Assembly (NCBI GenBank): GCA_009760855.2
Contig: WPIO01000169.1
Coordinates: forward strand, 237,501-301,500
Length of the DNA stretch: 64,000 nucleotides
Reading direction: 5' to 3'
Source of the DNA: Cristatella mucedo
Taxonomy: Eukaryota; Bryozoa; Phylactolaemata; Cristatellidae
The position numbers and the translations under genes were made by a program. This document shows positions 3,092 through 61,985 of the stretch, piece after piece. Numbering within the stretch: the stretch's first letter is position 1; each line of letters opens with the position of its first letter. Under the pieces are notes generated by a model. The model had not been told where the DNA came from, made no database searches, and was given only the letters and a program-made list of their open reading frames with translations.

Positions 3092-3155
3092 GGACACATG
3101 TGAAGCGCCTGAATAGAGATTGAGTTCTCTTAGGGCGCTATATAAATATTTTTTT
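3092..3155 (+). mobile_element. SINE1 3' end fragment
   Basis: Contains the SINE1 version of the tail hairpin (GAAGCGCCTGAATAGAGATT ... GGGCGCTATATAAAT), followed by a T-rich run. The tRNA-like head is absent. Confidence 0.6.
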
Positions 3156-3159
3156 TTAC

Positions 3160-4100
3160 ATTCCCTTCAATGGTCTGAGTGCCTGACCATCTTTCTTTCG
3201 GTCGCGGGCAGAGGCATAGCTCAGCCCTCCCATCGTCTTCTTTTAAACACGCTTTGGCACTCTGATCCACAGCCTATGCTCGGTCCATCTATCTAGTTGC
3301 TTTCAAACAATTCGTGTTTTATTATTTTATTCAGTTAATTCGCAAATTCTGGCTCTAATTGAGACCGCGGCCTGTCTTATCTGCAGCACCCGTAGGTCGT
3401 AGACTGTTTGTTATTGTGAGCAGCAATGGCGGCCACTTAATTGTGATATATGCCGACCATTGTCAAGACAAAGCTATCGAAAACTGTCATGAGTTACCTC
3501 CCTCAATGCATATGGTCTAATTATCGTTAATTTATGCTCTGTATACTACAAGATTACTACACTCTGTCTCCGAAGTAAACCGGAAGCAACAGACCAACAA
3601 ACGGGAAATTTACCAATCTCTGCACCACATATGACTTATGTCCTAACTTGTTGAACCTTGGTACATAAAGGTACGTGTTTGCAGCTTGATGAGATACCAG
3701 CTTGTGACTTTAAAACAGCTTCATTAGCGTTGTAGTTTTGTCCCTTGTAAATTCCAAAAATTAGCCAATACTGCAAGGATAATGTAAAATTTCAAGTACA
3801 AGCTCAGCTCTGCTTTTACTGCAGGAGTTCATTTCCGATTTCGGCTACATACATTTTGCTATGCATTATACATGATTGCAGATAATACAATGCAAGCACG
3901 TTAAATGACATTTTTAGAAAAACGTCTCCAACCGAAATCCGAAATGAGCTCCGGCAGTAAAAGCAGAACTGAACTAAGATTTCAAATTTTTCGTTCATCT
4001 ATCAACTATTGGCCCAGTTGTTTAATTTGCAAACTGTAAGGATCCACTGATAAAGAAGCTGTTTCAAAGTCACAGGCATGGACCTCAAAAACGGCTAACC
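3160..4100. other. No recognised gene
   Basis: AT-rich sequence without a supported exon. The minus-strand open frame at 3816-3998 has no motif or splice context that I can defend. Related sequence recurs at about 62880-63240 (shared wording around 'acttgttgaaccttggta' and 'cttgtgactttaaaacagct'), so this is probably an old dispersed repeat. Confidence 0.5.
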
Positions 4101-4109
4101 TGCAATGCA

Positions 4110-4750
4110 ACTTAATGTAATATATCTCTATATGTAATAACCCAAATCCAAAAAGACTGGGTGTTAGCGGTTTTTATAGCGTACTCACGGCCTAGGCGGC
4201 CTTCGGTATGCATGCGGTAGCCAACAGACTTCAACTCGCGTAACAAGGAAAAAGTTACATAAATATAAAATGCAATTCATTTATATAGCGCCCCAAGAGA
4301 ACTTAATCTCTATTCAGGCGCTTCACATATGCCTCGGGGCTCGAGCCCACGACCTCAGTCAGACCTTGGTCGGGGCGAGCACCTTAACCGCTAGACCAAA
4401 CCAGCTCGTTAACATTAAAGTGAGAAGCATAGCTGAGCCTGGTGGGCATGTAGAGGTAGTGAGTAATATGGAAGTAGCTGGTCGGGATGGCTGAACAGAT
4501 ACACTCCAATGGACGGTAAAAGAGTATATTTATGTCGCTGCACAAGAATAACCGGCGCGATTTTCATAGTCCAAGACCTGCAGAACAAAAGCTTCCGTCG
4601 CCAACGGTCTTCAAGTACAAGAATGAAAGAGCTAATGAATTGTCTAAAGAGGACCTGAGGGCAGGAGGAGGCTGAAACTAGTGCAGCAGTTGAGCTAGGT
4701 ACGAAGTAGCTCAGTCATGCTGGCAGCTCAATGTGCCAAGGGTCAACAAG
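4110..4750 (-). mobile_element. LINE B 3' end, split by a SINE1
   Basis: LINE B 3' sequence with the degraded tail at 4110. It is interrupted at 4265-4412 by an antisense SINE1 and continues to about 4750. The copy is 5' truncated and carries no intact coding frame. Confidence 0.75.
4265..4412 (-). mobile_element. SINE1 (tRNA-derived, LINE A tail)
   Basis: Read on the minus strand, this has a tRNA-like head with an A-box-like TTTGGTCTAGCGGTTAAGG and a B-box-like GGGCTCGAGCCCC. The tail hairpin AAGCGCC...GGGGCGCT matches the end of LINE A. It sits inside a LINE B copy; a short repeat, AAAGT, occurs on each side and may be the target duplication. Confidence 0.75.
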
Positions 4751-5077
4751 TTGGGACCCAAGTCGTATACGATGCAGAAATGGGTAAACACTTTTATTTG
4801 TAGACATGTTCATTCCAGTTTTTTACAGGTTAGGCTTGGTTTGCGGAATCCTTTTAAATGCTTTCCTTTTATGTAAAAGACTCCAGATCGCATTCTATAG
4901 TGTTTGTCTTTTAAAAGGTACCCTATCAAATTATTCGTTTGTTGAACCAATCTTCTCAGATCTTCTCGACATCGACTCTTAAGTAACACAGCTGCAAGAG
5001 GAGTGGAATGCATTTTGATTCTTAGTATTTATTGATGAGCAAAACATAATAAATCCCACTACTGCAGTAACGGCACA

Positions 5078-7821: not shown

Positions 7822-7936
7822 GATCCGCCCGCGCCGCGAGAGGAAGCCTCTGCCATGACCAGGAGTCGAACCTGGGTTATCGCGGCCACAATGCGAAGTA
7901 CTGACCACTATACTATCACGGCCACAACTGCTGATC
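7822..7936 (-). mobile_element. 115-bp tRNA-His element, copy 1
   Basis: Unit bounded by GATCCGC on the left and GCTGATC (one change from GCGGATC) on the right in plus coordinates, so its ends are inverted repeats. It is exactly the same length as the copies at 12557, 15700 and 21686. Confidence 0.8.
7851..7922 (-). tRNA. tRNA-His(GTG)-like, slightly decayed
   Basis: A 72-nt cloverleaf on the minus strand with loop TTGTGGC (anticodon GTG), T arm CCAGG-TTCGACT-CCTGG and discriminator A. It has one mismatch in the anticodon stem (TCGCA/CGCGA) and a G-U pair in the acceptor stem, so it is less intact than the other three copies. Confidence 0.55.
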
Positions 7937-12556: not shown

Positions 12557-12671
12557 GATCCGCCCGCGCCGCCAGAGGAAGCCTCTGCCGTGACCAGGAG
12601 TCGAACCTGGGTTATCGCGGCCACAACGCGAAGTACTAACCACTATACTATCACGGCTACAACTGCGGATC
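12557..12671 (-). mobile_element. 115-bp tRNA-His element, copy 2
   Basis: Terminal inverted GATCCGC/GCGGATC. In the minus orientation a 5' leader, the tRNA, a small hairpin GAGG-CTT-CCTC and a GC-rich trailer are followed by a T run (TATTTTTTTTT just outside) that could end Pol III transcription. Confidence 0.85.
12586..12657 (-). tRNA. tRNA-His(GTG), intact cloverleaf within repeat
   Basis: Acceptor stem GCCGTGA/TCACGGC with discriminator A, anticodon stem TCGCG/CGCGA around TTGTGGC (anticodon GTG), T stem CCAGG/CCTGG. Apart from a few stem changes it follows the known animal tRNA-His. All four copies share flanks, so this is a mobile or amplified tRNA. Whether it is used in translation cannot be told from sequence. 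Confidence 0.7.
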
Positions 12672-15699: not shown

Positions 15700-15814
15700 G
15701 ATCCGCCCGCGCCGCCAGAGGAAGCCTCTGCCGTGACCAGGAGTCGAACCTGGGTTATCGCGGCCACAACGCGAAGTACTAACCACTATACTATCACGGC
15801 TACAACTGCGGATC
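15700..15814 (-). mobile_element. 115-bp tRNA-His element, copy 3
   Basis: Same ends and length as copy 2, again preceded in plus coordinates by an A run and ATATT (a T run downstream of the tRNA). Confidence 0.85.
15729..15800 (-). tRNA. tRNA-His(GTG), intact cloverleaf within repeat
   Basis: Identical in all stems to the copy at 12586-12657. The anticodon is GTG. Confidence 0.7.
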
Positions 15815-21685: not shown

Positions 21686-21800
21686 GATCCGCCCGCGCCG
21701 CCAGAGGAAGCCTCTGCCGTGACCAGGAGTCGAACCTGGGTTATCGCGGCCACAACGCGAAGTACTGACCACTATACTATCACGGCTACAACTGCGGATC
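21686..21800 (-). mobile_element. 115-bp tRNA-His element, copy 4
   Basis: GATCCGC/GCGGATC ends, with an A-rich run then ATATT on the left in plus coordinates. Confidence 0.85.
21715..21786 (-). tRNA. tRNA-His(GTG), intact cloverleaf within repeat
   Basis: All four stems pair. It differs from copies 2 and 3 by TCAGTAC instead of TTAGTAC in the D arm. Confidence 0.7.
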
Positions 21801-23574: not shown

Positions 23575-24600
<1,026 letters not shown>

Positions 24601-33633: not shown

Positions 33634-35783
33634 TCACTTGATAAAGTGCCCTCAGAGAACCTAATCTCTTTCTAGGCGCTTTACATTTGCTGTAAAGTGA
33701 AATGCAATTGAATGGTAAGTAAAATCATGCTTGAAAAACAAACGAAATGAATAATATGGTTAGGGGTGACATGCACAGGGTCAGCATGCAAATGTGGTTA
33801 GTGGCAGCATGCACAGTGTCAGCACGAATAAGCACATCAAGGACGAATCACAGGGACCCACTAAATGCTGTCCTAAATAGGTGTGTTTTTAGGTCCCTTT
33901 TAAATGTGGTCAGGTCAGGGGATGTTCTGATGCAGGTCGGGAGGGAGTTCCAGGCTTTGGGAGCATACGAACTAAATGCACGGTCTCCAAAGGATTTAAG
34001 GTTTGTACGAGGTATTTCTAGACTGTCGGATTCCGAAAAGCGGGTGGTACGATGCTTGGCCTGATGGGGTAGTATATCTGAGAGAAAGGCTGGAGCCATA
34101 GAATGAAGGGACCTAAAAGTGAGCAACAAAACCTTGAAGTCAATAGCATGATGTTACTCACCATTCAATTGCATTTCCCTTTGCAGCAAATGTAAAACGC
34201 CCAGAGAGAGAGAGAGAGAGAGTGGGAGATTGAGTTCTCTGAGGGCGCTTTATCAAGTGCATTATTATTATTATTATTATTATTAACATCCGCTCGTCGA
34301 CTGAGCCGAATACACATGCTGGCACACATGCGAAAACCCCGACTTAGAAGGAGGAGCAAGCAGCAGCAGCAGCGTGAGGCGCCACGTGGAGAGGACACGC
34401 AGGCACACGCAGACTGCACGCAATGGCCGCCAGCCCATCACCGCTGCCGAGACTTGTCTCAAAAAAGTCTTGCGCCAGTGCTAAGCGCTCGATGGCTATC
34501 TCTTGGATGCTTTTTGAATTGTGCAGCTGCAGTGGCAGGCCGGAGCCTGGTTGCTGCATGTTACACCGCCCTAGAAGCCTCGCCGACGAGTCAGCTGCGT
34601 TGCCACGGCACAGCGGATGTGCCAGCTGTGAGTGCCTGACAAGTCGACAGAACGTCGTCAGCACAAGCGGTGTCAAACAGCGTGCCAACCGAGTCTCCCA
34701 CAACATGCCCAAACGCCATAGTAGAACGGCAGAGCTGAGTTTAGCCGGCTTTGCCCACAGCCCACCACAAAGCAGCCTACAGCGCTAAGCAAAAGCAGCT
34801 CCCCAGAGGAAGCAGCTTCCGGCGGTCGGTGCTTACTCTGAAAACGAGGCTGCATAGGCTGCCCCTAAGCTTGAAACTACAAAGCTCAGCTTCTAAGCAA
34901 ATGAGTGAATAGATAAATAAACAGCAGCAGATTCAATGGGCCCACAATGTGGCAGCAAAAGAGTCGTTGCGGCTGTCACCCCACTGCGCAGCTGCTAGCT
35001 GCTGTCCTCGAACCCGCCGCGGTCTGGTTAGTGAGGTGCGAGTGCCTGGTTGCTAGGCTAGGCTGGGACCAGTGTGCGACGAAAGTAGGCTTGCTCAGGA
35101 GGCTCAGTGCACACACTTTGCAGTGGCCACTGCCGAGCGCAACACTCGAAGGCTCCAAGAAAAATTCAACACAGATTTGAAAAAAAGAGAAGGAAAAACC
35201 TGACCGAATCGGCCAGTATTTTTTGGATTATTTTAATTTACTAATTTATTTCATTTAGTATTTTTTGGATTATTTTTGGATATTTGGAATATTTTATCTC
35301 ATGTGGATCACTGCCGCGCCACACAACAAAGGTGCGTCGAAGGCAAACTCACCCGACTTCTGGAAAACCGGTGGCAGAAGTTACAGCGGATCACGCATGC
35401 CGAACCTGCCCGTGGGAACACGGCAAGGTGTGGAGCGCAATCGCTCTGCAGCACGATCGCACTAGCCACGCTACAGGATGCAGGCGGGGGAGGGTGGGCC
35501 AGCTCACTTTGAACCCAGCCCATCGTGTTGACCACGAGCGGAGCTCCTCGCTGGCGATGCGTCTCGTATTCCTCAACCAGCGAGAGCACGCACTGCAGGT
35601 AGTGGTCCGGGTCGGCGTGCGGGCTCGTGCAGCCAAGGAACCTGACGCTGCAATTTCGAAAAAATTGCCTCATGTGAGGCGCAGCGCAAAAACGCTTGCA
35701 TAACTGAAAGTATAACTGAAAAGGTGCCGGCAGGTGGAGGGGAGGCATGCGCCTGCTGCTCGAAGGTGCAGCTAAACGGAGCA

Positions 35784-38800: not shown

Positions 38801-41800
38801 TATGTAGAAGAGCCTGATGCATTGGTTACAACGCACAAGCATCCCATAATCAAAGACTTGCTGTGACCGCATCAATACATTCGAGCCTACGAACGTCAGC
38901 CTAAACCGGTTTTGATTGATCGGTTGGACCAACAATGAGCCAACAGATTCTCCTTCCGATGAGTCTGCAGACCTGGCTCCTCCGCCAAAATTTTGTGACG
39001 GATGATGACATAGTAGCCCAAATCTGTGGGAAATCTGTCCAAAATCTGTGGGTAAGTCTGCCGAGTAAACGCAGACTTTCAACAACTACGGGTTATTGCT
39101 TCTTTGGCAAGCAGTTGTTAAGTGAGAGAATAGAGATTAGGTTCTCTTACGGAGCTGTGCAAAAAACTTATACGAGGTGCCAAGCCTACACACTCCTGAC
39201 CAAGCCTGTTAGAGCGGCAGTGCTAAGCACCCAAGCGTCTGCGCTAACGTAGGATTGCTGCTCACTCGATTACGGGATGCAATGCTGGACTTAACGAATC
39301 CGAAGTGAGACCGACACAGGCACAGACACTCTCGTGGCCATGCCAGCGCAGACCTACCGGTTTAGGAGGGAGTTGGCGATGTGACGAGTCAACGTCGACT
39401 TTCCGGCATTCTTTCCGCCGCACACAAGAACAATCGGAAGCGTGGCAGTGGCTACAAAAGGAAGTCGGGAAGATCACGAAGAGCGCCGCTCGCAAAGGAG
39501 CATGAAAGCGTGCAAGCAATATTCAATAGCAGGAAGGTGTGCAGAATTCTGTCCGTCTCTCTCTCTCTCTCACGCCCACACGATCGTAGTCCTCCTGCTT
39601 CTGCACTGACCAATCGCTGAGGACGACAAAGTTGCACTGGTTTGTTGTCCTGCATGGAATGACTGTAGCGGTTGATATTCAATTTAGAAGTTTGGCGCTA
39701 GCAGGAATCTCGAGCGATCCGCTTTGGGCAGCAGGGCTTCAGTGACTGGCCAGCCGGACGAGGCAGTGCTATGCCCTATGCTAGACACAAGAAGGCGAGC
39801 AACGTCTTAAAATAATAGGCACCAGGCACCGTCCTTGCTGGTATCGATAAAGTACACCCCTTCCACTCGCTCGACAAACTAGGCTACCTGCAACGAGGCT
39901 CAGTCGTTTCTTTAGCAAGCGCAAGATTAGCCAAGCCACTGTCATTTTTCGATAGCCGGTCAATAACATAAGGGATGCATTGGACACAGGGATCATTGCG
40001 CAATGCCTGAACACCTGCACCAGGACGTGACTGCCGCTAGTGCAAGCATGGAAAGTTCTAACGTCACTCAGACCTGTCAAAGTGGCACGACCCACGAGAC
40101 AGCAAACCAAAGTGGCTTGTGGGGACAGATGGCCTAATAAATGAAGTTTAATGGGCGAGTTTAATTTTAATTTAATTTTAATTAAGCGAGTGAATGGACC
40201 AAACGAAAGCAGCTCTTACGAACAGGTGACGATGCTAGCTGATTCAACAGCCTCTATTACATAGCGACAGAAGAGCCTTTACGGCTATTGCCACCTCTCG
40301 AAGCGGCCATACAGGATCGCCCACCGCAGGATTCGAACCTCGGGACCATCGTGAGAACGATCGGTCTGAAAAGCAACCACCTTACCTAGTGTGCCATCAA
40401 GTCTGATCGTGCAAAGGCGATGCTTGAGTCGAGTACGACTGCACTATAAATGCACTCACATGCGATCGACTAAAGCGATAGCATGCTGATACTGCCGTTT
40501 CGGCAAACCTGCGCTCTAACGGCTATGCATCACCATTTACTAATCGAGATTCTAAAAACAACAACATTGCCCACGGCAGTTCATGTGCTTCGTGCAGCAA
40601 GCACTGCACAATCTCAATGTGAGAGGCTTGGTGGGCTGCCTCACTAAAGAATCCGCCGACACTGCTGCTCTGTCGTTGCATTCTAGACAGATCGAGGATA
40701 GACCTGGATAGGGCACAATGTGCACATTGGCGATGCAGCACAGCCAGAAATGCCCAAAGTGGCTGACCACATGCAGTCTGAATGTATAGCAGCCCAACAC
40801 GATTCAACCTGCTGCACGTCGGGGAGAAGGGGGCCCGAGGAAGAAGATATACGAATCGGGAGCCTAGCGAATGGACACTCGGGCTCGCCACGCCGAAGAC
40901 AGCCGCCGCTCAACCCAGGGCGGAAGTGCTCGACAGCGAGCAGCGGCAGAGTCCAAAGCTGAGCGCCAGGTTCACAAGGGTCAGCCACGGCTCACGCATC
41001 CCGAAGCAGCCAATCATCGGCACCGATCGATAGTCCTCTCACCTTCCAGCTGGTCGAGCGACTCCTGCAGGCCGACGGCTGGCTCGAGCAGGCCGTTGCT
41101 TTCTGGAGTGGCGGCTGCCAGCAGGCGCATGCCGCCACCGCTAGCCAGCAGCCCGGGGCAATCGGCCCGCAGCGCTGGCAGATCCAGGAGGCGCCGATAC
41201 GCGCCGCCGCTGCCGACACGCAGTAGCGCTTCGGCGCTCTGCAGCTGCCTCAGCGCCAGCGTGACCCAGCGCCTCGGCGTCGCTGCTGCCGGCGGCGGCG
41301 CCTCCTCCGCGCGGGCAGCTGTGGCCGCGCTGCCGTCTAAGCAGTGGTCAGCGGCGGCGGCCTCCGCCTCGTCGAGGCTCAGAGCCAGGTGAGGATAGAG
41401 GCTGGGCGAGTAGACGTCGAAAAAGGCCGAGCCCGGTCGAAGCTTGAAGCCGTGCACTCGAAGAGCTCGGCCGCCGACGAGCCGCAGTCGGCAGCAGCCC
41501 TGCAGCACGAGCGGGAAGGCCGTCTCGCAGATCGACAGGAGGGCTTCGCTGCCGCCGCCGCGCGACTGGAAGCCATCGCCGATGGAATCGATCCTGGAAA
41601 ATTCAAGCAAGCCCCGTTGTTGCGATCGGCAAAACTGCAGCACCATGGCTAGAGGTGACATGGCTAGAGGTGATATGCCGAGGCCAAAACAGGGCGTGAC
41701 ATGTTACGGGTCACATGCAGAGGGTCAGCAGCATCCAAGACACCAACATGCAACCGATCGATCAAAGGGTGGCACGTTAGGCCAGCCTTAGCAGTCGCCT

Positions 41801-48932: not shown

Positions 48933-49047
48933 GTAGCTTGCTAACCCGACGCTGCTCTGAACGAGCCTAAGTATGTGTGCTTTAGGACTTCACATGTCAA
49001 ACACCACGGCTTATTGTAATAGTTGCGACTACTTTTTGCTGCTTTAG

Positions 49048-49190
49048 GGATGAATACGTCTAACACAGCAGTCCATGCTGCAGCTCATAATATTAACGCC
49101 CACTTTCCCGTGGCTGCAATTGTAATAATTGGCACGGCTGTTTATCTACTGGCTCTGGTTGTCGTGTTGTATTGCTGCAGACGTCTCACG
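49048..49190 (+). CDS. Cys-rich membrane protein, exon 1
   Basis: TTTTGCTGCTTTAG precedes; ATG at 49050. 47 codons to CTCACG|GTGAGA. Contains the transmembrane helix. Confidence 0.6.
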
Positions 49191-52100
49191 GTGAGAGTCC
49201 GGTCTCTTCCTCGCGCGGTTCTCTTTGCAGAAACCGAGACATTGTTCGAATTGTTCGCTGAATTCAGGTGTTAGTGAATGCTTGGCTATAACGAAGCCAC
49301 TAAACGCCGCCACCGCTTTAGTGTCTTGAGCAATGCTCGGCAACCGAGTCGCCGTCGACATGCACAGAGACATACTGGACATGGTGGTCCGAGTACTGGC
49401 AGCAAAATTGCAGCTGCCGCGCGCCCGAATTCTCGTCTATGGTGGACTTCCTCTGTCCGAAACGCAGGGTAAGGCACACCGTAATTCACGGTAGCGCATC
49501 AGTCGTGTTCGCAATTCTAGTGCTTTGATGTTTTTATGGCATAAGTAAAAGCCACGTTGTTGAGGATGATGGTGATGATGACGATGAGAATTTTTTTTAT
49601 TGCTCTTTACCTAAGAGAGAATGCAGCTCTTTTTTGGCACTTTAAATTATGTGAAAAAAATAATATCAACTGATTAATATACTCGTTAATTTCATTTAGG
49701 TTCTGTTAGTTTTTTCCTGTTTTGTTTCAAATGTTTTCAATTCAAAGAATTTAGTGATATCAATTGGTATAGAGCTTCAGGATTTAAACTGTCTAAGTAC
49801 TTAAGGTACGCTCTCTAAAGGTGTTGAGATTGGTTAGAGTCGCTGCTAAATGACCAGAGTCAGAAGAGAGGGTGGTATGACTCAACTCAGAGGAAGTTTG
49901 TGGTAGACGGGGAGCGAAAAGAGATTAAAAGTCTACTTATTATACTGCCTCAAGTCCGAGCACTTTTCCCCCCACTCGAGTTAAGGCCGATGGGAACCAG
50001 TGTATTTTGGAGGAAAAATAACAGTTTAGACTTTCCCAAAAACAAGCATAGTTTCCAAGTTTTGCACCATCTAACAGCGGCTCATAGCACATGCAGATAG
50101 TTTTCGAGGAGAGAGTTAAAAGAAAATAGGGACAGTATGTCACAAATGTATGGACCAGTTTGGCTACGATATCTATGCAAGCAGGTTTTTTTTTGAAATA
50201 TTACACCACTGAAAGTAGGCAGACTTGACTGTGAAGTTGATGTTGTCATCTTGCAAATTAATTTTGAAACGAGAGCCCATATTCCATGCAGAAGCTACGT
50301 GGGATAGGCCGGCCAGGTCAATTTTGATAGTCAGACTTCTCAATTTCTGAGTGATGCTTTCTATACAGTATATGTAAAGTGTCTAGAAAGAGATTCAGTT
50401 CTCTGAGGACGTTATACAAATGTGTTATTATTACTCATTTAAAATGACACGCTTCTATTACTCGAATAAAACGCTGCTGCTGAATACAAGCATGGAAATA
50501 TGATAGGCTTGGAATAAGGGTGTATGACTTCGCAGAAGCACATGAATAAAATTATAGCGACAGGTATATTGAAACCTAGTGGATATCAAGGTGGCAATGA
50601 TCACCTAATTTATTATTCTGATGCAAGGTAGTAGCCATGAGATTTCTCTGTATATTTCAACGCTGGCAGTGCCTACGTGCGTATGCCAATACAATTATGG
50701 CCAAGAGCTTGGTTAACTTATTCTATGGCCTTTTAACTCACCCGAACCAGTAAAGAGGCCGCAGTAGAAGTTAGCTGGATTACTGACACTCAGCTCTGAG
50801 GGTTAATCGTGAAGTGACTAGAAGCCTGGAGCACAGGCAACGATCTGAGCGTGCCTTACCAAAAATATTCGAAAGCGGGCATATTTGAGACCAGTTGCAA
50901 TTGTGTGACCGTTTAAACTCTTGGAGCTAAAAGCACAACCTTTACTCTTCAAAATGGAGCTCCAAATATTTTCACTCGTGTAGATTGAGTTACTATCGAG
51001 CTCGTGTATGGCCACAGCTAAGTCACACGAACGGAACGTTGGTCAGCCAAGAGCAGCGACGTGACGTTAGATGGACAGTTTGCTTGGATGACTGATTGTT
51101 TTATCATGGAGGTAGTCTGAACTGTCAAATAGCATCCGTAATCAACAAGTAGCTTTGTGATCTTGCGAAAAACTCTTAGCTTTAGTTAGCCATGCTGACT
51201 AGGTATTCACTCTCCGGATTATATGGTTGCCATGCCGAGCTGGTGCTCATGCCGAGCTGGTTTGGCCTAGCGGTTAAGGTGCTCGCCCCGACCAAGGTCT
51301 GACTGAGGTCGTGGGCTCGAGCCCCGAGGCATATGTGAAGCGCCTGAATAGATATTGAGTTCTCTTGGGGCGCTATATAAATGAATTATATTTATTATTA
51401 CTTTTTGGTTTACTCTCATCGTACGGAGAGGCTAGAATGATTACATATTCAAATCTAAAAGTGGCGCAGAAGGATTGGGAAGAGGTGGCTTTGAATGCAT
51501 GACTTTAGAAACTTAAATTTAGTGCTACAGCACCGTCAATGACCTGCTCGCGTTCAGGACCGATTTCGAAGACGAGCACTTAGTATTAATGGACAAGCGG
51601 CCTCTAAAAGACAGAGCAGCGCGCACTGCTCCGCTAGCCACTACTACTACTACCCAGTCCACGATCAAAAACGTTCTACTCCGTGCGGCTGGTCACCTGC
51701 TGGCAGTGCAGTTAGTGCAGCAAACTTTGAAATTGGGGGCCTTCGGTTCGAATTCGGCCGATGTTAAGATTTGTTGCCATCGCTTGAGATATCACCACAA
51801 ATGCAAGAACTAGCAGTGACTAAAGCCTTAAGAATACAGTGGTTCTGCGAAGCTTGCCGGCGGTCCTTAGACAGCAGCTCTGTGCAAACTCGGCTCGACG
51901 TGCACACATTGCAACGTTGGTTGCTTTTAATTTATCGCTCGTTCAGAGCAAATACGAACTTGCATGATCTATGGACTTGAGAGTGACTATGCACGGGACA
52001 ATGTTCACTCTCTAGACATAAAAAGAACGTGCTAGACAAGGTTCCGGAAGCCACTGCTGTAGGAGCTCTCGCTAACGAAGAACGAAGCGAGTGGTGACGA

Positions 52101-52836
52101 TGACGACGGCTGTATTGTTTCATATGCAGGCACCGCAAGCGGGTGAGCGTAAATACTGATTAAGCCATCTCGGAAGCAGCTCCGAAGCACCGGGTTGAGA
52201 AAAGAGATAGCGAACCTACAGGGCGACGCACAGGCAGAAAGTCGTTTGCTGCATACGACCGAAAACAAATACTAGCTGATTTAACAGCCTCTTTTTGTAT
52301 AGCGACAGAAGAGCCTTTATTGCTATAACCCCGCTTGCAGTGTCGATAAAGGATCGCCCACCACAGGATTCGAACCCACGACCTCGGGGCCGAGGTCGTG
52401 AAAAGCAACCGCCTTAAGCCGACCCGTTGCAATTACATTGAGCTTAGTTAGCTGATACAGCCCGACTGCAGTGCCTAACGAGCTGGCACGCGAGGCACCA
52501 GTTGGCCGGACGGAGTGGGGTGAGTCCGGGTGGGGTAGAACAACCTTGTGGCATGGCGACACCCACACTGCTGTAACTACTGAATTGCAGGTGCTACCTC
52601 GGCGACAGGTGCCTCCCCCAGTAGCTGTCTTTAGTGGCAAGCTTTAGGTAGCTCTAAGTTTAAGACTTTTCTGCTTGTAGAGAATGAACCTGCTAGACGT
52701 TATATGCTGTCAGCCGTGCATTCCTGATTGCTCAGATGGCTGTCATTGTGGTCCATGCAACTGCAACTTCAACTGCGAGTGCGACGACTTCAGCTGTCTC
52801 TGTCTTAAATGCACAGCCCGCCCCGTCGAGATGTGA
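49048..52836 (+). CDS. Predicted Cys-rich single-pass membrane protein
   Basis: Three exons, 49048-49190, 49322-49468 and 52681-52836, all joined in phase 0 with GT-AG introns, give 147 residues and a TGA at 52834. Residues 1-19 form a short polar N-terminus with an NTS sequon (N2). Residues 20-41 form a hydrophobic helix (VAAIVIIGTAVYLLALVVVL), followed at once by YCCRR. Residues 48-96 hold six cysteines and a Trp/Tyr-rich patch (YWTWWSEYW). Residues 97-147 hold 13 cysteines in CC, CxC and CxxC spacing (HCGPCNCNFNCEC, CLCLKC). The total is 21 Cys. I do not recognise the family. The dense CxC spacing suggests metal binding or palmitoylation on a cytosolic tail, or disulfides if extracellular; this is inference. 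The GG before the ATG follows a strong acceptor-like site, so a 5' UTR exon probably lies upstream. Confidence 0.6.
49322..49468 (+). CDS. Cys-rich membrane protein, exon 2
   Basis: CCGCTTTAG acceptor, then CLEQCSATESP. 49 codons to CGCAGG|GTAAGG. Starts and ends in phase 0. Confidence 0.6.
50140..50362 (-). mobile_element. LINE A RT fragment
   Basis: Antisense match to 61110-61320 (TGTATGGACCAGTTTGGCTA, CAGACTTGACTGTGAAGTTG), diverged. In intron 2 of the Cys-rich gene. Confidence 0.6.
50365..50432 (+). mobile_element. LINE A 3' tail hairpin
   Basis: ATGTAAAGTGTCTAGAAAGA, hairpin, TTATTATTAC. Opposite orientation to the adjacent LINE A fragment. Confidence 0.65.
51235..51412 (+). mobile_element. 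SINE1, full length
   Basis: Head GGTTTGGCCTAGCGGTTAAG (A box) and GGGCTCGAGCCCC (B box), then the AAGCGCCTGAATAGATATTG...GGGGCGCT hairpin and a TTATTATTA tail. The words CATGCCGAGCTGG occur twice at its 5' side (51231-51261). Confidence 0.85.
52272..52416 (-). mobile_element. SINE2
   Basis: CTAGCTGATTTAACAGCCTC, AGGATTCGAACCCACGACCT, head truncated near 52416. In intron 2 of the Cys-rich gene. Confidence 0.8.
52681..52836 (+). CDS. Cys-rich membrane protein, exon 3
   Basis: TTTTCTGCTTGTAG acceptor, 51 codons with 13 cysteines, ending ARPVEM and TGA. It also begins with an AGA-ATG, so alone it could be a 50-residue protein. Confidence 0.6.
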   Translation, partial: RMNLLDVICCQPCIPDCSDGCHCGPCNCNFNCECDDFSCLCLKCTARPVEM

Positions 52837-58283: not shown

Positions 58284-59548
58284 ATCTAGCCGATCGCTTC
58301 ACTCGATTCTTTGTGCAGAAGATGGACAAGATCAGGGTGTCCATCCCTGCGATGACAGCACCTAGAATGCTGTCCCCCGATTCCTGGCTGCACCTCAATG
58401 TCCACATTTAAGCTCGTCACTAGTGATCTCGTCCTGGAGTTCGTATCCCATTCAAAGATGACAAAATGTCCTCTGGATCCTATTCCCACTGCCCTGCTAC
58501 TACGGTACATTGATCTGCTGCTGCCATGCATAACTAACAACATTATTATGCCATTAGACTCAGGTCATGTCCCAGCACCTTTAAAAAAGGCTGTAGTGAG
58601 GCCACTTCTCAAGAAAGCGACACTAGACTAAGAGAATTTGGGCAACAACCACCCAGTTTCCCTTGTACTATTCCTATCAAAGACACTGGAACGATTCGTG
58701 GCTGACAAGCTGAACTCATGTTGAAACTTCAAACCTTGCTAGGAAGTTCTAGTCTGGCTTTAGAGCTAATCACTCCACAGAGTCAGCATTGCTTCGGGTA
58801 TACAACGACCTACTTTGGAATGCAGACATAATAGAGTGTCTCTGCTTGTTTTGCTCGATCTTTCGGCAGCTTTTGATACTATCGATCGGAAAGTTTTTCT
58901 AGAGCGCCGCTCATCTCGCCTGGGCATCACTCGCACTGCTCTGCAGTGGTTCAGGTCCTATTTCAGTGGGAGACTCCGGAGTATTGACGTGAATGGACAA
59001 AGATCATCTGAGGTACCTCTGAAATATGGGGTACCTCAGGGCTTCGTGCTAGGTCCGGTTCTTTTCACGGTTTATACTCTCCCTCTGGCTGTCGTGATTG
59101 CCAAGCCCAATCTAGGCTTTCATTTCTATTCGGATGACACTCAGTTGTACCTTTGCTTTGATCCCTCCCAGCATTCGAGCACCAAGAATTCTCTCAACTT
59201 CCTTGCTGCATGTATTGATGACATCCTCGCACGGATGGCAGCAAATTTTCGTAAAGTAAACAATGATAAAACTAACTTTCAATTTATGGGCAAACCCAGT
59301 GTGATTCAGAAATTGTAACAGCTGACGCTTAAAATTGGCTCTGCCAGCATATCTCCTGTTGAAGCCGCTCGAAATCTTGGTGTCGTGTTCCAAAGTGGCC
59401 TCTCGTTAGATGACCGCGTCAGCTCCACAATCAAGTCAGCCTACTTTCACGTACATAACATTGCTACAATTCGGGTTTGTTTAGATAAGGATACCACGTC
59501 TAAGATGGTCCATGCATTCACGATATCCCGTCTTGACTTCTGTAAGTC
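58284..59548 (+). mobile_element. LINE A continued: reverse transcriptase
   Basis: Resumes with ADRFTRFFVQKMDKIR, then a frame with CPLDPIPTALLLRYIDLLLP and a 167-codon RT core frame (58815-59318): DLSAAFDTID, GVPQGFVLGPVLF, FYSDDTQLYL. There is a frameshift just before 58815 and a stop at 59318. Truncated at 59548 after SRLDFCKS, so no 3' end. Confidence 0.85.
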
Positions 59549-60401: not shown

Positions 60402-61985
60402 TTTTAATATTAATAATAATAATGCACTTGATAAAGCGCCCTCAGAGAACTTAATCTCTCTCTAGGCGTTTTACATTTGCTGCAAAGCGAAATGCAATTG
60501 AATGGTGAGTAAAATCATGCTTAATAAAAAACAAAATGAATAACATGGTTAGGGGTGACATGCACAGGGTCAGCATGCAAATGTGGTTAGTGGCAGCATG
60601 CACAGTGTCAGCACGCATAAGCACATCAAGGACGAATCACAGGGACCCACTAAATGCTGTCCTAAATAGGTGTTTTTAAGTTCTTTTTAAATGTGGTCAG
60701 GTCAGGGGATGTTCTGACGCAGGTCGGGAGGGAGTTCCAGGCTTTAGGAGCATACGAACTAAATGCACGGTCTCCAAAGGATTTGAGGTTTGTACGAGGT
60801 ATTTGTAGACTTCTGGATTCCGAAAAGCAGGTGGTACGATGCTTGGCCTGATGGGGGAGTATGTCGGAGAGATAGGCTGGAGCCAAAGAATGAAGTGACC
60901 TAAAAGTGAGCGACAAAACCTTGAAGTCAATCCGTTGCTTGACTGGTAGCCAGTGCAGGTCTTCAAGAAGTGGAGTGATGTGGCAACTGCGACGCTCACG
61001 ACAGACAAGCCTAGCTGCAGAGTTTTGCACCAGCTGCAATCGCCTGATCGCATATGCCGGTAGGCCAGTAAGCAGTGAGTTGCAGAAGTCAAGACGAGAT
61101 GTCACGAATGCATGAACCGACTTGGACGTAGTATCTTTATCTATACAAGCCCGAATTTTAGCAACGCTATGAAGCTGAAAAATAGGCAGATTTGACTGTG
61201 GAGCTGATATGGTCGTTTAACGAGAGGTTGCTTTGGAATATGACACCAAGATTTCGAGCGGCTTCAACAGGAGATATGCTGGCAGAGCCAATTTTGAGCG
61301 TCAGCTGTTACAATTTCAGAATCACACTGGGTTTGCCCATAAATTGAAAGTTAGTTTTATCATCGTTTACTTTACGAAAATTTGCTGCCATCCGTGCGAG
61401 GATGTCATCAATGCATGCAGCAAGGAAGTTGAGAGAATTTGAGGTGCTCGAATGCTGGGAGGGATCAAAGCAAAGGTACAACTGAGTGTCATCCGAATAG
61501 AAATGAAAGCCTAGATTGGGCTTGGCAATCACGACAGCCAGAGGGAGAGTATAAACCGTGAAAAGAACCGGACCTAGCACGAAGCCCTGAGGTACCCCAT
61601 ATTTCAGAGGTACCTCAGATGATCTTTGTCCATTCACGTCAATACTCCGGAGTCTCCCACTGAAATAGGACCTGAACCACTGCAGAGCAGTGCGAGTGAT
61701 GCCCAGGCGAGATGAGCGGCGCTCTAGAAAAACTTTCCGATCGATAGTATCAAAAGCTGCCGAAAGATCGAGCAAAACAAGCAGAGACACTCTATTATGT
61801 CTGCATTCCAAAGTAGGTCGTTGTATACCCGAAGCAATGCTGACTCTGTGGAGTGATTAGCTCTAAAGCCAGACTGGAATTTACTAGCAAGATGTGAGGT
61901 TTCGATATATGAGTTTAGCGTGTCCGCCGCGACCCGTTTCAGAGTCTTTGAAAGGAATGGTAGAAGGGAGACTGGGTGGTAGTTT
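60402..61985 (-). mobile_element. LINE A, 3' complete, 1.6 kb
   Basis: (AAT)n and hairpin at 60408-60475, 3' UTR, the C-terminal frame (60662-61105: SRLDFCNSLLTGLPAYAIRR), and the RT core frame (61308-61811) with FYSDDTQLYL. 5' truncated at about 61985. It carries the same frameshift and stop as 58284-59548. Confidence 0.88.

What the first reader, a model, noticed from the sequence alone, without database searches (positions are those of the whole stretch)
49048..52836. Unrecognised three-exon gene for a 147-residue Cys-rich membrane protein
Three separate segments, each with clean splice signals, join in the same phase. Together they make a single-pass helix followed by 19 of the 21 cysteines in CC/CxC/CxxC spacing. 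Chance ORFs would not share phase, cysteine enrichment and splice sites. I know of no named family with this exact layout.
Basis: partly seen in the sequence, partly recalled or inferred. Interest (0 to 1): 0.75.

Follow-up and report, generated by a model that had tools for sequence, protein, structure and literature searches.

The report
Real three-exon Cys-rich membrane protein gene

Summary
Exons 49050-49190, 49322-49468 and 52681-52836 join in phase 0 into a 147-residue protein with 21 cysteines and one membrane helix. Chance does not give this: 0 of 19,049 simulated upstream regions hold such a chain, and exon 3's cysteine density exceeds the maximum of 60 simulated windows. Decisive is a paralogue in the window's own 572-Mb genome (G000:C66:6124220-6125536): three exons in the same order, frame and intron phase, 41% identical, silent sites saturated, 17 shared cysteines. 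So this is a real family of at least two genes, conserved as protein. No Pfam, PDB, viral or prokaryotic relative was found. Overstated: the exon 2 acceptor is weak and CxC spacing adds nothing beyond cysteine density. Best reading: an N-out single-pass membrane protein whose cytosolic cysteine-rich tail binds metal and/or is S-acylated. The gene is well supported; the mechanism is inference. Transcripts and other animals' sequences could not be searched.

The parts
49046..49047 (+). strong 3' splice-site-like AG (tactttttgctgctttag) 2 bases before the start codon: end of a 5'-UTR intron or a trans-splice site; the paralogue also has an AG directly before its ATG
   Evidence: score 5.5, top 0.5% of 4914 AGs; paralogue 1.9, top 5% of 1027 AGs
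49050..49190 (+). exon 1 (coding part): MNTSNTAVHAAAHNINAHFPVAAIVIIGTAVYLLALVVVLYCCRRLT, short uncharged N-terminus and membrane helix followed by CCRR
   Evidence: paralogue exon 1 46% identical over 37 residues
49191..49321 (+). intron 1, 131 nt, phase 0 (acg|GTGAGA...TTTAG|tgt); acceptor weak
   Evidence: paralogue intron 82 nt at the homologous place
49322..49468 (+). exon 2: CLEQCSATESPSTCTETYWTWWSEYWQQNCSCRAPEFSSMVDFLCPKRR
   Evidence: paralogue exon 2 matches in this frame only
49469..52680 (+). intron 2, 3212 nt, phase 0 (agg|GTAAGG...TTGTAG|aga); holds interspersed repeats at about 50351-50444, 51253-51399 and 52262-52416
   Evidence: paralogue intron 785 nt
52681..52836 (+). exon 3 with stop: RMNLLDVICCQPCIPDCSDGCHCGPCNCNFNCECDDFSCLCLKCTARPVEM*, 13 Cys
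   Evidence: one match as DNA in the genome; paralogue 53% identical, E 3.2e-7

Best explanation
A real, intact, three-exon protein-coding gene of an invertebrate animal, one of at least two family members in its genome. It encodes a 147-residue single-pass membrane protein: about 20 uncharged residues outside, a helix (residues 21-41), then CCRR and a roughly 100-residue cysteine-rich tail inside the cell (inferred from the positive-inside rule). In the reducing cytosol the closely spaced tail cysteines (12 of the 13 in exon 3 are shared with the paralogue) most likely coordinate Zn(II) or Cu(I) in a membrane-tethered, metallothionein-like way, with the cysteines next to the helix probably S-acylated. 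Shown: gene structure, family, conservation as protein. Inferred: topology, metal binding, acylation. The gene claim alone I put at 0.95; the figure below is for the mechanism.
For: Gene: in-phase model, chance controls, paralogue with the same three exons, phases and frames, 0 of 2000 shuffles for each exon. Selection: 142 aligned codons differ at 61 first, 50 second and 101 third positions; NG86 dN 0.56 with dS saturated (no estimate returned); 37 of 58 identical residues have different codons; 12 of 17 shared cysteines use different TGC/TGT codons. Topology: no K, R, D or E in the 20 residues (window) or 15 residues (paralogue) before the helix, two basic residues within about ten residues after it in both (sequences). 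Metal or acylation: 19 of 103 tail residues are Cys in the window copy and 25 of 105 in the paralogue; most exon 3 Cys spacings are kept between the two.
Against: No transcript. No metallothionein or other family match; two recalled metallothionein patterns absent from both proteins, and the window tail has 10 aromatic residues (4 in the paralogue), unlike classical metallothioneins. Six Cys of paralogue exon 2 stand opposite T, Y, W, W, F and M in the window copy, so about half the possible ligands of that part are not kept. No topology program was run. The CxC count is what density alone gives in the window copy.
Confidence: 0.42

Rival explanations
1. Same gene, opposite topology: the tail is outside or in the secretory lumen and folds by disulfides into a small membrane-tethered extracellular cysteine-rich domain.
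For: Cys-rich small domains are common outside cells (established knowledge); the hydrophobic segment lies near the N-terminus.
Against: Basic residues follow the helix and none precede it, in both paralogues; tail Cys number is odd in both (19 and 25); hydrophobic run long and without an obvious signal-peptide cleavage site (read from sequence, no predictor run).
Confidence: 0.25
2. Same gene and topology, but the tail is an S-acylated, membrane-hugging scaffold or protein-binding tail and does not bind metal physiologically.
For: CC directly at the inner membrane edge in the window copy; W, Y, F in place of exon 2 cysteines would suit membrane contact.
Against: CC at the helix end is not kept in the paralogue (VRQC); the most conserved cysteines are in exon 3, far from the helix.
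Confidence: 0.2
3. The main product skips exon 2: exon 1 spliced to exon 3 (also in phase) gives a 98-residue protein.
For: Both junctions are phase 0; acceptor 2 is weak.
Against: Exon 2 is conserved as protein, in frame, in the paralogue, whose acceptor 2 is also only moderate (top 11% of 1027 AGs).
Confidence: 0.08
4. Chance open frames or a decayed pseudogene.
For: Weak acceptor 2; six paralogue exon 2 cysteines not present in the window copy; no AATAAA or ATTAAA within 1.9 kb after the stop.
Against: No stop or frame shift in any exon, all junction dinucleotides present, silent sites saturated with 41% protein identity; simulations. The paralogue also lacks a near hexamer (first at +1603).
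Confidence: 0.03

Closest known systems
CYSTM (cysteine-rich transmembrane module) proteins, eukaryotes
   Same: Small cysteine-rich membrane proteins; the title of PMC10217909 links two yeast members to manganese stress (listing and abstract start only).
   Different: CYSTM proteins are tail-anchored (abstract start), with the Cys in and beside a C-terminal helix (recalled); here the helix is near the N-terminus and the Cys lie in a 100-residue tail. No Pfam match.
MyoD-family inhibitor (I-mfa, MDFI/MDFIC) domain, PF15316
   Same: Very Cys-rich intracellular domain (recalled).
   Different: No match of either protein in Pfam at E up to 10; none in this genome by the family search, but that search rang in 0 of 14 controls, so it shows little. 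Order of helix and Cys domain differs (recalled).
Metallothioneins
   Same: About a third Cys within the core of exon 3, with C-x-C and C-x2-C.
   Different: Membrane helix, aromatic residues, few lysines; no Pfam match and neither of two recalled metallothionein patterns.

Membership tests
CYSTM | match to the CYSTM sequence profile | tested here: not met
   hmmscan of Pfam-A at E up to 10, both paralogues: not among the matches; HMMER's filters can drop weak ones
CYSTM | tail anchor: helix at the C-terminus | tested here: not met
   helix at residues 21-41 of 147
MDFI / I-mfa domain | match to PF15316 | tested here: not met
   none; genome search none, but its controls rang in 0 of 14, so that call alone is inconclusive
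Metallothionein | match to a metallothionein profile or signature | tested here: not met
   Pfam; two recalled patterns 0 hits in both proteins
Metallothionein | binds Zn/Cu/Cd through thiolate clusters | not testable with these tools
   needs purified protein
the family described here (two members found) | three coding exons, phase-0 introns at homologous places, NAxFPVAAIVII helix, CPKR[RQ] at the exon 2 end, exon 3 Cys pattern | tested here: met

The most novel reading that the evidence does not exclude
The two genes found here belong to an undescribed animal family of membrane-tethered, metallothionein-like proteins in which a conserved N-out helix holds a cytosolic thiolate-cluster tail at a membrane, and the window copy differs by carrying mostly aromatic residues where the paralogue's exon 2 has cysteines.
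Probability: 0.2. Interest if true: 0.55.

Novelty: new member of a known kind. Interest (0 to 1): 0.33.

Why it matters
It shows that a multi-exon gene with a repeat-bearing 3.2-kb intron can be called correctly from raw sequence by composition, phase and splice signals, and then checked within one genome by a paralogue. Biologically it gives a defined, conserved, apparently unnamed Cys-rich membrane protein pair whose tail chemistry (metal or lipid) can be tested directly.

Tried and rejected
Considered another frame of exon 2 (49330-49494) because it has its own ATG, G-rich first codon positions and a faint ubiquitin-like look (impressions by eye and from memory).

Considered exon 1 running on, or other acceptors such as 49230 (score 5.5). 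Not pursued: it leaves a 40-nt intron and an exon that the paralogue does not support.

Cys-rich phase-0 exon-like segments in the window itself: 6 segments passed the splice thresholds and 3 of them reached the cysteine fraction of exon 2. So in this window, unlike in the simulations, that feature alone is not rare; the other two lie on the minus strand at 35353-35445 and 41043-41174 and were not studied.

Weak whole-genome matches: one search gave 8 rows: 3 are the paralogue's own exons, 2 are window exons 3 (E 1.3e-7) and 1 (E 0.08), and the other 3 (L014, L016, L017; E 0.05, 0.29, 2.8) were judged chance or other genes; L014 scores slightly better than window exon 1 but holds a stop and runs across the exon 1/2 border. 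One search gave 4 rows: the window itself and 3 with E 1.6-3.2 (L007-L009), dropped after because no neighbouring exons were found. Distant members may have been missed; the tool calls its counts lower bounds.

Pfam showed only matches far under the cut-offs: DUF2530 (E 0.18, 0.11), MRVI1 (0.45), Glycophorin_A (0.11) and DUF4006 (0.24), all over the helix. PDB: best E 0.69 and 0.37, none for the alternative frame.

Searches of viral contigs and genome contigs had 11, 119, 61 and 593 pattern matches, none confirmed; by their descriptions these collections are of viruses and prokaryotes, so this says little about animals. Paper searches: searches found 0; one search listed 10 of 124, one search listed 8 of 33, one search listed 6 of 6; I saw listings and abstract starts only and opened no paper. 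Nothing listed named this family; that is no proof that it is not in print.

dS could not be estimated (saturated; LWL85 and YN00 failed), so no dN/dS value is claimed.

Full report
What was claimed. I rebuilt the join: exon 1 49050-49190, exon 2 49322-49468, exon 3 52681-52836 including TGA, all junctions phase 0, 147 residues, 21 cysteines. Many other GT/AG choices are open as well (798 combinations in the ranges searched), so an open frame alone proves little, and the splice evidence is uneven: with a recalled human-like matrix the two donors and acceptor 3 are in the top 1% of their kind in the window, acceptor 2 only in the top 16%.

Is it chance. Three controls say no. Exon 3 has 13 cysteines in 36 residues; 60 simulated 64-kb windows never exceeded 10, and the only stretch of 11 or more besides it in the window, with the CAG array masked, is a simple poly-Cys repeat. 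Of 301 ATG-started open stretches of 47 residues or more, only exon 1 has a helix this hydrophobic. In 19,049 simulated 4-kb upstream regions a TM first exon with such a donor appeared in 1, a cysteine-rich phase-0 second exon in 13, the chain in none; thresholds were taken from the observed gene, so these are guides.

The decisive test. The window's own genome is held: G000, 572 Mb in 688 contigs, window at C76:237501-301500. Exon 3 as DNA gives one match, itself, but as protein it has a relative on contig C66 (53% identity, E 3.2e-7). Around it lie matches to all three exons in order on one strand: exon 1 46% over 37 residues, exon 2 33% over 46, exon 3 52% over 46. The paralogue's exons are C66:6124220-6124345, 6124428-6124583 and 6125369-6125536, introns 82 and 785 nt against 131 and 3212 in the window, all phase 0 with GT/AG ends at homologous places. 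It encodes 149 residues with 26 cysteines; the two proteins are 41% identical. Genome-wide, exon 1 alone would not stand out (E 0.08) and exon 2 alone finds no counterpart; it is their position beside exon 3, in order and in phase, that carries them.

Selection. Over 142 aligned codons, first, second and third positions differ at 61, 50 and 101 places; 37 of 58 identical residues use different codons, and 12 of the 17 shared cysteines differ between TGC and TGT. NG86 gives dN 0.56 and cannot estimate dS because it is saturated. Protein sequence, and the cysteines above all, has been kept while silent sites randomised. Six cysteines of paralogue exon 2 stand opposite T, Y, W, W, F and M in the window copy; which state is older is unknown.

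Anatomy. Helix residues 21-41; before it 20 residues without K, R, D or E, after it CCRR. The stretch FPVAAIVII and the NA before it are identical in both copies. By the positive-inside rule (established knowledge) the tail is cytosolic; no topology program was run. In both genes an AG stands directly before the ATG (window 2 bases, score 5.5; paralogue 0 bases, score 1.9), so the coding start may follow a 5'-UTR intron or a trans-splice site. No AATAAA or ATTAAA lies within 1.9 kb (window) or 1.6 kb (paralogue) of the stops. The large intron holds repeats found elsewhere in the window; none of the listed repeats overlaps the exons.

How it may work. A cytosolic tail with 19 cysteines in 103 residues (25 of 105 in the paralogue) most likely binds Zn or Cu, with S-acylation near the helix. 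This is inference; the disulfide-bonded extracellular reading and the acylated-scaffold reading remain open.

Relatives. No Pfam family reached its cut-off for any of 5 plus 3 query sequences, no PDB sequence was significant (best E 0.69 and 0.37), none was confirmed in viral or prokaryotic collections. The genome searches found two members, a lower bound. Membership in CYSTM, MDFI and metallothionein families was tested and not met. No other animal sequences were searchable, so how old or widespread the family is stays unknown.

The organism. Contig C688 (21,008 bases) carries a COX1 that covers the whole family model. Judged against COX1 motifs that I recall, its codons read TGA as Trp, AGR as Ser, ATA as Met and AAA as Lys, which is the invertebrate mitochondrial code, table 5. 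From recalled code usage that fits a protostome or a lancelet and speaks against cnidarians, sponges, echinoderms, flatworms and tunicates. The species was not identified.

Noticed in passing
window 23577-24143: Perfect (CAG)189 array, 100% match over 567 bases.
   Followed up: no
window 7851-7922, 12586-12657, 15729-15800, 21715-21786 (- strand): Four tRNA-His(GTG) genes spaced 3-6 kb apart, Rfam scores 58-65 bits.
   Followed up: no
window 58770-59318 (+) and 61308-61856 (-): Two nearly identical reverse-transcriptase-like open stretches in inverted orientation about 2 kb apart.
   Followed up: no
window 51253-51399 with 4262-4408; 52262-52416 with five further near-full copies: Interspersed repeats, probably SINEs with tRNA-like ends (by eye), 79-95% alike; one copy of each lies in intron 2 of the gene.
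   Followed up: partly
window 35353-35445 and 41043-41174 (- strand): Two further cysteine-rich, phase-0, exon-like open segments between good splice signals.
   Followed up: no
L022 (G000:C688:10000-19500), about 991-2857 and 3106-4972: Mitochondrial contig of 21 kb in which a set of five predicted tRNA-like hits repeats at 2115 bases, suggesting a tandem duplication.
   Followed up: no
G000:C166, C83, C549, C299: Further partial COX1 matches on other contigs, some with TAA or TAG inside as well as TGA, probably nuclear copies of mitochondrial DNA.
   Followed up: no
L017 1507-1599 (G000:C680): A membrane-helix stretch resembling, from memory, that of the BAMBI pseudoreceptor; a weak match to the paralogue's exon 1.
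   Followed up: no
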